Source: Roseburia sp. (GTDB lineage Bacteria; Bacillota; Clostridia; Lachnospirales; Lachnospiraceae). From it: a DNA stretch of 64,000 nucleotides. The stretch lies in contig JAGBEG010000011.1 in assembly GCA_017937095.1 (NCBI GenBank), forward strand, positions 108,438 to 172,437. Direction: 5' to 3'. Both the position numbers and the translations under genes were made by a program. Positions 4,084 to 46,421 of the stretch are shown here, in pieces; position 1 is the first letter of the stretch; each line of letters begins with the position of its first letter. The notes beneath the pieces were generated by a model. It was not told the DNA's origin and ran no database searches. It saw nothing but the letters and a program-made list of their open reading frames with translations.

Positions 4084-4491
4084 ATGGAATTAGATATTTT
4101 TGAGCAGTTTCCCGACAGGGAAACCTTTGATAAATACTGGGCGGAGAACTATAAGCCGGTGGTGTATGAGGATGTGCGCGAGGCGTTTATGGACTTTGTG
4201 AAGGCTGCGGATGGGCATATCTATATTTCTGATTACGAGGAAAAGGGACTGATTTCGAAGGATGATTTTAAGGAAAATTTGTCGCAGGAAGCACAGTTTA
4301 CCTTTCAGGATGGGCTTACGGAGGTCTTTTACGACAAGAATCCGGAGCTTTATGAGGCGGCGTTCGCACTTTACGAGGAGGCGAAGCTCACCGGAAAAGG
4401 GGATGCCGCTGTGGCGCAGATTTTTCACGAGACATTTCAGGCGCTGTATGCCGAGTTTCTGGACTGCCTGTACGATGAGGTGCTGGCATAA
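4084..4491 (+). CDS. Hypothetical acidic protein upstream of rsmA
   Basis: I do not recognise this 135-residue acidic, soluble protein. It begins MELDIFEQFPDRETFDKYW and is rich in Glu, Asp and aromatic residues, with no membrane segment or signal peptide. GGAGGAAT precedes the ATG. Its stop codon overlaps the rsmA start by one base, so the two are translationally coupled and co-transcribed. A ribosome-related or regulatory role would only be a guess from this position. Confidence 0.75.
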   Translation: MELDIFEQFPDRETFDKYWAENYKPVVYEDVREAFMDFVKAADGHIYISDYEEKGLISKDDFKENLSQEAQFTFQDGLTEVFYDKNPELYEAAFALYEEAKLTGKGDAAVAQIFHETFQALYAEFLDCLYDEVLA

Positions 4492-43812: not shown

Positions 43813-43983
43813 TCAATCTCCACCCGGACCGTCTTTGCGCGGTCTGGATGACTCCGGCAGAGGTTCCACGTTGTAGCTGTCCTTCACGGAAACGCCGTCC
43901 TGCGGCAGATCAACGTCCGGAATGTTGCCGTCGTCATAGAGATTGGTGGGTTTGTTTGGGGTATTTTTGTTTTTTGATTCCAT
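43813..43983 (-). CDS. Small acidic hypothetical protein (56 aa)
   Basis: A complete short frame reads MESKNKNTPNKPTNLYDDG at its start and ends SRPRKDGPGGD before TGA at 43813. AGGAAGGTGCACG gives a well-spaced ribosome-binding site. The protein is polar, rich in Asp and Pro, and probably unstructured, without membrane segment or Cys. It is convergent with the GH13 gene. No function is known to me. Confidence 0.72.
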   Translation of the reverse strand: MESKNKNTPNKPTNLYDDGNIPDVDLPQDGVSVKDSYNVEPLPESSRPRKDGPGGD

Positions 43984-44052
43984 CGTGCACCTTCCTTTCG
44001 GGAATAGGATGTGCAGAATGTCCGGATATATTCCTCAGTGATTTGATTTGTG

Positions 44053-44081
44053 TACCATAATTCCTATAAATGTGGTATCAT
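44053..44081 (+). promoter_or_regulatory. Toxin promoter, module 1
   Basis: TACCAT (44053-44058), 17 bases, and extended -10 TGG-TATCAT (44076-44081). About 70 bases from here to the ribosome-binding site are identical in module 2. Confidence 0.7.
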
Positions 44082-44128
44082 GTATATGTTGTCGCACCCT
44101 ATACTGGCAACAGGAAGGGGGTGTCGTT

Positions 44129-44224
44129 GTGGCTATACTTATATCATTTTTTGTTTCTGTCGCAGCAGGTGTTGTCTGCCACCTCATCTGCAAATGGCTA
44201 GACAGTAACAATAGCGACAATTAG
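44129..44224 (+). CDS. Type I (par/Fst-like) toxin peptide, module 1
   Basis: The 31-residue peptide starts with GTG, 7 bases after AGGAAGGGGG. It has one hydrophobic span (ILISFFVSVAAGVVCHLIC) followed by KWLD and a polar SNNSDN tail, the layout of Fst-type membrane toxins. In the mRNA, CACCC (44095-44099) can pair with GGGTG (44119-44123) and cover the ribosome-binding site. A convergent antisense RNA gene follows. Such peptides disturb the membrane when overproduced. The call rests on architecture shared with module 2, since the peptide is too short for a firm family assignment. Confidence 0.78.
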   Translation: MAILISFFVSVAAGVVCHLICKWLDSNNSDN

Positions 44225-44228
44225 CCTA

Positions 44229-44300
44229 TAAAAAACCCACAGACTGCCATCTGTGGGTTTTTACTTTTGTGTCATTGTGGCACTTATATCATTTCTGCCT
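44229..44300 (-). ncRNA. Antisense antitoxin RNA, module 1 (predicted)
   Basis: The RNA of about 72 nt runs leftward from the promoter at 44307-44335 to the shared terminator. The DNA of its 5' part, 44269-44294, is a direct repeat of the toxin start region: GTGTCATTGTGGC matches 44121-44133 at 12 of 13 positions, and ACTTATATCATTT matches 44137-44149 exactly. The antisense RNA can therefore pair with the toxin mRNA at its start codon as well as at the terminator hairpin, as in par of pAD1. Ends are estimates. Confidence 0.75.
44231..44262. terminator. Bidirectional terminator, module 1
   Basis: AAAAACCCACAG and CTGTGGGTTTTT form a stem around ACTGCCAT. T runs on both sides let it stop the toxin mRNA and the convergent antisense RNA. 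Confidence 0.88.
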
Positions 44301-44306
44301 AGGCAT

Positions 44307-44335
44307 ATTATAGCATATGCCTCCGGCATTAGCAA
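44307..44335 (-). promoter_or_regulatory. Antitoxin RNA promoter, module 1
   Basis: On the minus strand, TTGCTA (44330-44335), a 17-base spacer and consensus TATAAT (44307-44312). It looks stronger than the toxin promoter. It is conserved in module 2. Confidence 0.82.
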
Positions 44336-44436
44336 GTATTGTCTTTTCTGTTTGAAATCATGCGTTTATTTGCAATCATTGTTTAATGGAATGCCTCACT
44401 CATAAACATCTTCTTTATTATAACTTCCAGTGAATC

Positions 44437-44465
44437 TACCATAATTCCTATAAATGTGGTATCAT
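44437..44465 (+). promoter_or_regulatory. Toxin promoter, module 2
   Basis: TACCAT (44437-44442), 17 bases, TATCAT (44460-44465) with an upstream TGG; identical to module 1. Confidence 0.7.
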
Positions 44466-44512
44466 GTATATGTTGTCGCACCCTATACTGGCAACAGGAA
44501 GGGGGTGTTGGT

Positions 44513-44608
44513 TTGGAAATGCTGACTTCTTTTTTACTCTCCGTCATGGCAAGCATAGTTGCCTACTTTGTTTGCAAATGGTTAGACGGTGGAGATTGCG
44601 ACAATTAG
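44513..44608 (+). CDS. Type I (par/Fst-like) toxin peptide, module 2
   Basis: The 31-residue peptide starts with TTG at the place where module 1 has GTG, 7 bases after AGGAAGGGGG; an internal ATG at 44519 is less well spaced. The hydrophobic span (LTSFLLSVMASIVAYFVC) is followed by KWLD and GGDCDN. CACCC (44479-44483) and GGGTG (44503-44507) can hide the ribosome-binding site. Leader, length and C-terminal KWLD are conserved with module 1, while the middle has diverged. This is typical of paralogous toxins under selection to stay functional. Confidence 0.78.
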   Translation: MEMLTSFLLSVMASIVAYFVCKWLDGGDCDN

Positions 44609-44612
44609 CCTA

Positions 44613-44684
44613 ACAAAAACCCCAGAGCCGACACTCTGGGGTTTTGATTTGGTGTTGTTTGGAACACACCGACTTCTTTTGCCT
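44613..44684 (-). ncRNA. Antisense antitoxin RNA, module 2 (predicted)
   Basis: The RNA of about 72 nt is transcribed leftward from 44691-44719. Its template repeats the module 2 start region: GGTGTTGTTTGGAA (44651-44664) matches 44504-44518 with one base deleted, and GACTTCTTTT (44671-44680) matches 44524-44533 exactly. The repeats match their own toxin better than the other module's, suggesting specific pairing. Ends are estimates. Confidence 0.75.
44615..44645. terminator. Bidirectional terminator, module 2
   Basis: AAAAACCCCAGAG and CTCTGGGGTTTT form a stem around CCGACA. The stem differs from module 1 (CCCACAG/CTGTGGG) but pairing is kept by compensating changes. Confidence 0.88.
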
Positions 44685-44690
44685 AGACAT

Positions 44691-44719
44691 ATTATAGCAT
44701 ATGCCCCCGGCATTAGCAA
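44691..44719 (-). promoter_or_regulatory. Antitoxin RNA promoter, module 2
   Basis: On the minus strand, TTGCTA (44714-44719), 17 bases, TATAAT (44691-44696), the same as module 1. Confidence 0.82.
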
Positions 44720-44798
44720 GCATTCTCTTTTTCTCTTAAAATTATGCAAAAAGAACGGAGAACCTTCCAATCAAGCTCTCCGTGCCCCTGCCAAGGAA

Positions 44799-44872
44799 TC
44801 GGAGTAACAGGATTTGAACCTGCGACCTCACGGCCCCCAGCCGTGCGCGCTACCAAACTACGCCATACTCCG
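44799..44872 (-). tRNA. tRNA-Pro (GGG anticodon)
   Basis: The 74-nt cloverleaf has acceptor arms CGGAGTA/TACTCCG with an A discriminator. The anticodon stem CACGG/CCGTG encloses the loop CTGGGGG (anticodon GGG), and the T arm contains GGTTCAAATCC. CCA is not encoded. It reads codon CCC. Module 2 of the toxin array lies just to its left. Confidence 0.95.
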
Positions 44873-46335: not shown

Positions 46336-46421
46336 CGGAGACGGCGGGATTCGAACCCGCGTGCCCCGGAGGGCTAACGCATTTCGAGTGCGCCCCGTTA
46401 TGACCACTTCGATACGTCTCC
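46336..46421 (-). tRNA. tRNA-Ser (CGA anticodon)
   Basis: The 86-nt class II tRNA has acceptor arms GGAGACG/CGTCTCC with a G discriminator and anticodon loop CTCGAAA (anticodon CGA). A long variable arm (GCCCTCCGGGGC region) and T arm GGGTTCGAATCCC are present. It reads codon UCG. CCA is not encoded. Confidence 0.95.

What the first reader, a model, noticed from the sequence alone, without database searches (positions are those of the whole stretch)
44050..44720. Two tandem type I toxin-antitoxin modules with par/Fst-like architecture
Seen: two 384-bp-spaced copies of the same unit. Each has an identical leader promoter, a hairpin that can cover the ribosome-binding site, and a 31-codon peptide (one TM span, then KWLD and a polar tail) starting with GTG or TTG. 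Each also has a terminator with T runs on both sides and a consensus promoter pointing back from the right. Known: the par locus of plasmid pAD1 has convergent toxin and antisense RNAs sharing a bidirectional terminator. Inference: these are chromosomal type I modules, too small for normal gene calling, that keep the par layout with a Clostridia-specific peptide.
Basis: partly seen in the sequence, partly recalled or inferred. Interest (0 to 1): 0.85.

Follow-up and report, generated by a model that had tools for sequence, protein, structure and literature searches.

The report
Tandem par/Fst-type RNA-regulated toxin–antitoxin modules
Two neighbouring mini-genes each seem to make a 31-residue membrane peptide, probably a self-toxin, kept silent by a small RNA made from the opposite strand; they are gut-bacterial members of a known plasmid-addiction family, also known from pneumococci, and each module carries its own matching RNA code.

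Summary
Two units 384 bp apart each have a forward promoter, a leader hairpin over the ribosome site, a GTG/TTG-started 31-codon membrane peptide ending in KWLD plus a polar tail, a two-sided terminator and a strong reverse promoter. The start-codon stretch is repeated just inside the antisense promoter. In 118 modules (4 own, 114 relatives) this repeat matches best, or ties, within its own module in 97, although it differs between modules; in 11 multi-module loci this held for 25 of 25. The toxin mRNA 5' end pairs with its own ORF end in long peptides and just after the stop in short ones, with compensated changes. These are the DRa/DRb repeats and upstream helix of the pAD1 par locus. Rfam's SpF66 model, a pneumococcal transcript whose consensus itself spells CKWLD, matches module 1 from exactly the predicted 5' end (E about 2e-4, below its threshold); another own module and several relatives pass that threshold. 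So this is an Fst/par-type type I toxin–antitoxin clade, not Clostridia-specific. Transcription here and toxicity are inferred. New points: fast-diverging, self-matching antitoxin codes, and a peptide tail that doubles as an RNA arm.

The parts
44076..44081 (+). module 1 toxin-mRNA -10 (TATCAT, TG at 44073-44074)
   Evidence: sequence; extended -10 seen in relatives by eye
44088..44095 (+). module 1 5' arm of upstream helix (GUUGUCGC), predicted mRNA 5' end
   Evidence: Rfam RF02442 match begins at 44088
44094..44124 (+). module 1 5' stem-loop covering the Shine-Dalgarno sequence
   Evidence: fold
44121..44149 (+). module 1 start-codon copy of direct repeats (DRa/DRb-like)
44129..44224 (+). 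module 1 toxin ORF, GTG start, 31 aa
44214..44221 (+). module 1 3' arm of upstream helix (GCGACAAU), inside codons S-D-N
44231..44262 (.). module 1 bidirectional terminator
44269..44294 (-). module 1 antisense copy of direct repeats
44226..44301 (-). module 1 predicted antisense (antitoxin) RNA, about 75 nt
   Evidence: inferred from promoter and terminator; fold z -4.8
44307..44335 (-). module 1 antisense promoter TTGCTA-17-TATAAT
44460..44465 (+). module 2 toxin-mRNA -10 (TATCAT)
   Evidence: sequence
44472..44479 (+). module 2 5' arm of upstream helix
   Evidence: paired with 44598-44605 in the MFE
44480..44506 (+). module 2 5' stem-loop covering the Shine-Dalgarno sequence
   Evidence: folds
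44504..44533 (+). module 2 start-codon copy of direct repeats
44513..44608 (+). module 2 toxin ORF, TTG start, 31 aa
44598..44605 (+). module 2 3' arm of upstream helix, inside codons C-D-N
44616..44645 (.). module 2 bidirectional terminator
44651..44680 (-). module 2 antisense copy of direct repeats
44610..44685 (-). module 2 predicted antisense (antitoxin) RNA
   Evidence: inferred from promoter and terminator
44691..44719 (-). module 2 antisense promoter TTGCTA-17-TATAAT

Best explanation
Each unit is a complete type I toxin–antitoxin module of the par/Fst kind. RNA I (+) encodes a 31-aa single-span membrane peptide, most likely a self-toxin. Its 5' end pairs with the end of its own ORF (the upstream helix, which in pAD1 stabilises the message), and a hairpin hides the Shine-Dalgarno sequence. 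RNA II (-), about 75 nt, starts just outside a second copy of the start-codon repeats and ends at the shared terminator. Pairing of its repeats with the same repeats around the GUG/UUG start blocks translation. Shown by sequence and comparison: the parts, their conservation, the own-module match of the repeats and the covarying helix. Inferred: transcription here, translation block, RNA II lability and toxicity. The modules of one genome should hardly cross-silence, because their repeats have diverged.
For: Repeats: of 139 modules found, 127 had full flanks and HMM score 39 or more, 118 remained after thinning; own score 35.7 vs 17.5 (sd 3.6) for foreign pairings; own best or tied in 97 of 118, top three in 109; controls reverse complement 16.8, ORF end 16.6, leader 20.5. 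25 of 25 modules in 11 multi-module loci match their own repeat best. Own genome: predicted duplexes -29.6 to -42.9 kcal/mol for four cognate pairs, -12.5 to -23.0 for the twelve others. Antisense promoter: 93 of 97 above the 95th percentile of shuffles; -10 end 9-13 nt from the repeat in 79 of 97. Upstream helix: 7 or more Watson-Crick pairs in 57 of 106 vs 3.1% of 9,140 foreign pairs. Coding: differences by codon position 4272/1263/6289. Rfam RF02442 SpF66: module 1 27.1 bits, E 1.9e-4 to 2.7e-4; C13 module 49.6 (threshold 42). Megamonas relative: 29.2 bits against NF033608, cut-off 26. Pneumococcal F66 and neighbour F67 are listed as sRNAs, F67 annotated as Fst-family toxin (PMC12323649, passages).
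Against: No RNA or toxicity data for this organism. The window peptides are below every Fst model (NF033608 13 bits vs 26 for module 1, not listed for module 2; PF13955 not listed) and the Rfam matches of both window modules are below threshold (27.1 and 20.7 vs 42); RF01797 fstAT was not among window matches at E<=1. 21 of 118 modules are not own-best in the repeat test; six have rank 13 or worse (L041, L032, L042, L130, L043, L037), and three of these look broken. The closest orthologue of module 2 found (L023, G028) has a repeat score of only 25, rank 3. The terminator-loop U-turn motif is mostly missing (18 of 106). The MFE of module 1 lacks the upstream helix. Module 2 and C13 lack the glycine of the S/TxxxG motif.
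Confidence: 0.9

Rival explanations
1. A C. difficile-type type I module: the antisense RNA acts through one long 3' overlap that triggers mRNA decay, and the start-codon repeats are incidental.
For: 55 of 102 family peptides match NF047374 CD_typeI_toxin at E<=1, best 2.2e-5; C. difficile modules are also convergent, and the review suggests decay through a long complementary region (PMC6563280, passages).
Against: For module 2 the match covers only residues 5-20, the membrane span. The start-codon repeats are kept with own-module specificity, which a pure 3'-overlap mechanism does not need; the predicted overlap is only the terminator region.
Confidence: 0.04
2. A small membrane peptide with a physiological, non-toxic role, under antisense translational control of the same layout.
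For: No toxicity test exists here; PMC7472228 (section 3) says the only verified function in the family is plasmid stabilisation by its founder.
Against: Presence on small plasmids and phage contigs, several self-matching copies per genome and decay in which the toxin front is lost are what addiction modules show.
Confidence: 0.05
3. A non-functional repeat or remnant: only a recent duplication with chance promoter matches.
For: The two leaders are identical, so the duplication or conversion is recent; two decayed copies exist in the genome.
Against: Third-position bias, conserved promoter, covarying helix and concerted repeat changes between orthologues.
Confidence: 0.01

Closest known systems
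par locus of Enterococcus faecalis pAD1 (RNA I/RNA II, Fst) and its homologues
   Same: Convergent promoters, two-sided terminator, DRa/DRb over the GUG start, 5' stem-loop over the SD, 5' upstream helix, about 30-aa single-span peptide with a conserved tryptophan (features as given in PMC7472228, section 3 and passages). The review already names commensal Clostridia among hosts.
   Different: No PxxxG (0 of 102); S/TxxxG at the aligned position in 60 of 102. CKWLD motif, acidic/polar tail. U-turn rare. In long members the 3' helix arm is inside the ORF. The pAD1 sequence itself was not compared.
Streptococcus sRNA SpF66 (Rfam RF02442) and pneumococcal F66/F67
   Same: Rfam consensus contains ugCAaAUGGCuaGAc, which reads C-K-W-L-D (my translation), starts with a GUUACCG arm and has uaGCCUaUA further on; own C13 module (49.6), E. 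mundtii plasmid (43.3), S. pluranimalium (93.8), S. suis (70.8) and Aerococcus (65.1) modules pass the threshold of 42. F66 and F67 lie side by side in D39 (coordinates in PMC12323649), so tandem pairs exist there too.
   Different: Catalogued as an sRNA in Rfam; of 20 genome-contig loci given, 3 pass the threshold (L114, L078, L124), and 2 of 60 genus genomes.
Megamonas funiformis plasmid module (WP_208854436.1, annotated Fst family toxin)
   Different: Four residues longer; weak by plain BLAST (E 0.4).
Lpt of Lactobacillus rhamnosus plasmids (PMC5608710)
   Same: 29-aa toxin; DR over the start codon in two conserved halves with a variable spacer; UH and SL (sections 5 and 11 read).
   Different: Not held under the six accessions tried, so no direct comparison was made.
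C. difficile type I toxins (NF047374)
   Same: Similar membrane-span sequence; convergent antisense RNA.
   Different: Longer toxins (model length 51); repression attributed to a long 3' overlap (PMC6563280, passages).

Membership tests
par/Fst type I toxin-antitoxin (Fst/Ldr superfamily) | about 30-aa peptide, one membrane span, conserved tryptophan between span and C-terminus | tested here: met
   K and W invariant in 102 peptides, lengths 26-35; the span is judged from hydrophobicity by eye
par/Fst type I toxin-antitoxin (Fst/Ldr superfamily) | P/D/S/TxxxG motif in the span | tested here: inconclusive
   S/TxxxG at the aligned position in 60 of 102, PxxxG in 0; module 1 has it, module 2 has S in place of G
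par/Fst type I toxin-antitoxin (Fst/Ldr superfamily) | highly charged C-terminal tail | tested here: inconclusive
   tails after WL: mean 2.5 D/E and 1.1 K/R in 6.3 residues
par/Fst type I toxin-antitoxin (Fst/Ldr superfamily) | convergent promoters | tested here: met
   sequence level only: antisense; sense promoter by eye
par/Fst type I toxin-antitoxin (Fst/Ldr superfamily) | bidirectional terminator shared by both RNAs | tested here: met
   stem found in 106 of 118, A and T feet on both sides in 89 of 118
par/Fst type I toxin-antitoxin (Fst/Ldr superfamily) | direct repeats DRa/DRb at the start codon and at the antisense 5' end | tested here: met
   97 of 118 own-module best or tied; start-codon copy typically -9 to +23
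par/Fst type I toxin-antitoxin (Fst/Ldr superfamily) | 5' stem-loop over the Shine-Dalgarno sequence | tested here: met
   folds of both window leaders; leader fold z below -1 against mononucleotide shuffles in 78 of 98
par/Fst type I toxin-antitoxin (Fst/Ldr superfamily) | upstream helix hiding the mRNA 5' end | tested here: met
   7 or more Watson-Crick pairs in 57 of 106, 3.1% in foreign pairs; whether its partner is at the same place in pAD1 was not checked
par/Fst type I toxin-antitoxin (Fst/Ldr superfamily) | U-turn (YUNR) in a terminator loop | tested here: not met
   18 of 106 in the RNA I loop, 7 in RNA II; PMC7472228 says not all homologues have it, so not defining
par/Fst type I toxin-antitoxin (Fst/Ldr superfamily) | above curated Fst protein-model cut-offs (NF033608, PF13955); a database criterion, not a defining one | tested here: not met
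   window peptides below; 33 of 102 family peptides match NF033608 at E<=1, best 5.6e-5; the Megamonas relative passes
par/Fst type I toxin-antitoxin (Fst/Ldr superfamily) | peptide toxic, antisense RNA labile and protective | not testable with these tools
   needs expression and RNA half-life experiments
Rfam RF02442 SpF66_sRNA | covariance-model score at or above 42 | tested here: not met
   module 1 27.1, module 2 20.7; but the own C13 module 49.6, so the relation of the window pair is by close paralogy
Rfam RF01797 fstAT (Fst antitoxin) | covariance-model match of the antisense RNA | tested here: not met
   not listed for the window stretch at E<=1; the S. simulans yardstick scores 82 (threshold 72)
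C. difficile CD_typeI_toxin (NF047374) | full-length match above cut-off | tested here: not met
   16.8 bits vs cut-off 60 for module 2, residues 5-20 only

The most novel reading that the evidence does not exclude
Par-like modules in tandem form self-matching, diversifying arrays: after duplication the leader stays alike while the start-codon repeat and its antisense copy drift together, so each copy needs its own antitoxin and none can be lost safely. Alongside, the mRNA 5' end is a three-way switch: it pairs first with the loop of the local SD hairpin and later with the ORF end, so the peptide's C-terminal S-D-N tail is kept for RNA folding rather than for toxicity.
Probability: 0.35. Interest if true: 0.7.

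Novelty: new member of a known kind. Interest (0 to 1): 0.42.

Why it matters
It ties a multi-copy family in gut Lachnospiraceae and other Bacillota, the Fst-type par loci, and an RNA that Rfam lists only as a streptococcal sRNA (SpF66) into one clade with the CKWLD ending. Protein models mostly miss it: of the plasmid matches listed, 0 of 20 (29 in all) and 1 of 33 had an annotated gene beneath, with the caveat that the plasmid gene table is stated to be incomplete. It gives about a hundred natural repeat pairs with which type I antitoxin specificity can be read and tested. It suggests why the toxin tail comes in two lengths: the helix arm lies inside long ORFs and after the stop of short ones. 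Small plasmids of gut Clostridia with such modules should be addictive (inference).

Tried and rejected
Pfam, NCBIfam, PHROGs and PDB searches of the window peptides or the family gave no direct naming. NF033608 in 21 genomes: 18 matched at E<=10, none over the cut-off, and 13 of 14 control genomes rang too, so chance level. First upstream-helix tests were too blunt: a duplex-energy comparison with fixed windows was dominated by the shared GUUGUC arm (own best in 2 of 118, top tenth 46; mean -12.1 vs -9.2 foreign and -9.6 mid-ORF), and a fixed anchor on AGCC mis-set some arms and dropped 29 of 118 (paired fraction 0.67 vs 0.59 shuffled). The flexible test replaced them (12 of 118 dropped for lack of an anchor). 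Local pairing of the 5' arm with the hairpin loop: Watson-Crick only gave 37 of 105 with 5 or more vs 21.8% foreign, and no clear excess at 6 (12 of 105 vs 10.1%) or 7 (1 of 105 vs 3.2%); with fixed position 10 of 98 vs 3.3% at 6, with G-U 58 of 98 vs 23%. So this contact is only suggested. L012 is a chance match. U-turn: not conserved. A present antitoxin role for the C19 half-module: its antisense matches none of the four intact start regions well (-12.6 to -20.6).

It raised the confidence from 0.88 to 0.90 (rivals lowered by 0.01 each for the first two) and lowered the interest from 0.50 to 0.42.

Literature: in the listings (20 shown of 62, 146, 35 and 101) I saw no paper on these modules in Lachnospiraceae. 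Of the founding par papers I looked up only PMC2648210 (not held); the Fozo 2010 paper was seen only as a cited reference, so I cannot exclude that single members were listed there (PMC6563280 mentions Fst-like hits in C. bolteae and C. asparagiforme).
Full report
WHAT IS THERE. The two units at 44053-44363 and 44437-44747 are real, 384 bp apart. Each has, left to right: a -10 with TG before it (TATCAT at 44076 and 44460), a 5' arm GUUGUCGC, a hairpin CACCC/GGGUG over the Shine-Dalgarno sequence, a GTG- or TTG-started 31-codon ORF, a terminator stem with A tract left and T tract right, a second copy of the start-codon stretch, and a leftward promoter TTGCTA-17-TATAAT preceded by TG. Predicted RNAs are about 180 nt rightward and about 75 nt leftward. 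The genome (G000, 3.89 Mb, 24 contigs) holds two further intact modules (C9, C13), one on C19 whose toxin front is gone while terminator, repeat and antisense promoter region remain, and one on C7 beside tRNA-like stretches whose toxin front is also lost.

TEST 1, START-CODON REPEATS. From all loci 139 distinct modules were taken. Full flanks and an HMM score of at least 39 left 127, thinning left 118: 71 from genome contigs, 19 viral, 18 from genus genomes, 6 plasmid, 4 own. The stretch -35 to +40 around the start codon was aligned with the 200 nt from 18 nt after the first stop base, for own and foreign partners. Own mean 35.7, foreign 17.5 (sd 3.6). The own partner was best or tied in 97 of 118 and among the top three in 109. 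The repeat typically lies at -9 to +23. Controls with the reverse complement, ORF end and leader gave 16.8, 16.6 and 20.5. Of the worst six, L041 and L042 have in-frame stops and L043 no proper start; L032, L130 and L037 are unexplained.

TEST 2, SEVERAL MODULES SIDE BY SIDE. Of 13 loci given, chosen because they held or might hold more than one module, 11 have two to four (25 modules, spacing 374-1360 bp, one of four units 392-402 bp apart). Every module's start region matched its own antisense copy best (25 of 25; one of them, in L085, has a truncated toxin). In the 14 of 18 within-locus pairs with leader identity above 0.75, mean identity was 0.89 for the leader, 0.72 for the repeat and 0.71 for the rest of the ORF; the repeat was less alike than the leader in 14 of 14, but less alike than the ORF in only 7 of 14. 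So repeats diverge faster than leaders, not clearly faster than ORFs. In the one orthologue pair examined (module 2 and G028) the contrast is sharper: repeat copies 62% and 69% identical, rest of ORF 95%, terminator 91%, leader 85%, antisense promoter 79%; both copies change from GACTTCTTT to AACTTCGTTT, although that orthologue's own repeat score is only 25, rank 3. Among the four intact own modules, predicted antisense-target duplexes are -29.6 to -42.9 kcal/mol for own and -12.5 to -23.0 for foreign targets.

TEST 3, ANTISENSE PROMOTER. In the 97 modules with a repeat score of 30 or more, the leftward consensus is TACTTGaaA...CATATGcTATAAT; the -10 ends 9-13 nt outside the repeat in 79 of 97. 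Scores exceed the 95th percentile of shuffles in 93 of 97; mean 8.4 against 6.1 shuffled and 5.9 on the other strand. The best site in each stretch was taken, in controls too.

TEST 4, UPSTREAM HELIX. The mRNA 5' arm is complementary to the end of the ORF or the bases after the stop. In 106 modules with a recognisable arm (12 dropped), the longest Watson-Crick run is 7 or more in 57 and 6 or more in 81, against 3.1% and 15.8% for foreign partners whose arm differs at two or more positions (9,140 pairs), and 1.6% and 8.1% for shuffles; 46 distinct helices of 6 or more occur, for example GUUACCG/CGGUAAC and GUUAUCAC/GUGAUAAC; the window's GUUGUCGC/GCGACAAU is 7 Watson-Crick pairs plus one G-U. 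Among the 81, the 3' arm ends at or before the stop in 51 of 54 ORFs of 30 or more codons and starts beyond the first stop base in 25 of 27 shorter ones; 5 straddle. I infer that the long tail (often S-D-N) is under RNA rather than protein constraint. Two blunter versions of the test gave weaker results. The module 2 MFE contains the helix with the SD hairpin; the module 1 MFE does not. The same arm can also pair with the loop of the SD hairpin, and 24-nt prefixes of both RNAs fold that way before the SD hairpin replaces it by 32 nt; statistical support for this is mixed (see Tried and rejected), so the co-transcriptional switch is the weakest claim.

TEST 5, IS IT CODING. In 837 close pairs the differences over codons 4-25 by codon position are 4272, 1263 and 6289; conserved C, K, L and D use varied synonymous codons.

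WHAT IT IS CALLED. PMC7472228 (section 3 whole, other passages) lists the par features: convergent promoters, bidirectional terminator, direct repeats, 5' stem-loop over the SD, 5' upstream helix, U-turn in some; and for the peptide a tryptophan after the span and P/D/S/TxxxG within it. At sequence level all RNA features except the U-turn are met. The tryptophan is invariant in 102 peptides; S/TxxxG is at the aligned position in 60, PxxxG in none. Window peptides are below the protein models; 33 of 102 family peptides match NF033608 at E<=1, best 5.6e-5, and 55 match NF047374, best 2.2e-5. The Megamonas relative passes NF033608. An annotated Fst of S. simulans gave no match to the family profile, though its RNA shows a helix right after the stop (read by eye; repeat score 25) and its antisense passes Rfam fstAT (82 bits), which the window stretch does not match at E<=1.

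THE RFAM LINK. Below threshold, RF02442 SpF66_sRNA matches module 1 over the model's whole length, 44088-44276, beginning exactly at the 5' end predicted here (27.1 bits, E 2.7e-4 and 1.9e-4), and module 2 over 44558-44656 (20.7 bits). Its consensus contains C-K-W-L-D codons. The own C13 module (49.6) and the E. mundtii plasmid locus (43.3) pass the threshold of 42; Megamonas (37.1), C9 (22.5) and the four units of L173 (25.7-31.5) do not. Of 8 further plasmid loci 3 pass (65.1-93.8), of 20 genome-contig loci 3, of 60 genus genomes 14 match at E<=0.01 and 2 pass, while 1 of 14 control genomes rings, below threshold. F66 and F67 are neighbouring candidate sRNAs in pneumococcus (PMC12323649, passages: table rows M17 and M18), M18 being annotated as a type I Fst-family toxin; PMC6212727 (passages) reports three detected type I systems there. 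I infer that SpF66 is the toxin mRNA of this clade, so a homologous RNA has been seen in cells.

FUNCTION. Established for the founder: plasmid addiction (PMC7472228). For these chromosomal copies I infer a self-toxin held off by its antisense RNA; the benefit to the host is unknown. The decayed copies (C19, C7, and the module-1-like remnant in G028, which by eye has also lost its antisense -10) fit a system in which the antitoxin stops mattering once the toxin is gone.

Noticed in passing
L011 (G000:C19, about 390-600): Half-module: toxin front missing, C-terminal codons, terminator, repeat copy and antisense promoter region kept; its antisense does not match the other own modules well.
   Followed up: partly
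L185 (G000:C7:192200-193100, minus strand about 500-340): Second decayed module, right behind two near-identical tRNA-like stretches; toxin front lost, CKWL ending and terminator kept.
   Followed up: partly
L184 (G028:C4:19800-23100): This relative has one intact module (orthologue of module 2) after the GH13 gene, and a module-1-like antitoxin remnant beside the tRNA on the other side of that gene: the locus has been rearranged.
   Followed up: partly
window 44222-44228 and 44296-44301 (and relatives): A conserved UAGCCUA at the toxin stop and a conserved UAGGCA near the antisense 5' end could form an additional contact between the two RNAs; not tested.
   Followed up: no
window 44088-44276: Sub-threshold match to Rfam SpF66 suggests that this Rfam 'sRNA' family is a toxin mRNA encoding a CKWLD peptide.
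   Followed up: yes
L173 (G262:C23:95000-97600): Four tandem modules at 392-402 bp spacing, each matching its own repeat best.
   Followed up: yes
L158 (Streptococcus suis plasmid CP084909.1): A module of this family with no listed gene lies on a small plasmid that also carries a predicted tet(O) gene.
   Followed up: no
window 44799-44872 and 46336-46421, minus strand: tRNA genes lie to the right of the modules (Rfam hits), a possible integration neighbourhood.
   Followed up: no
window 43813-43983, minus strand: 56-aa ORF between the GH13 gene and module 1; no Pfam or NCBIfam match at E<=1; its DNA is 84% conserved in G028.
   Followed up: no
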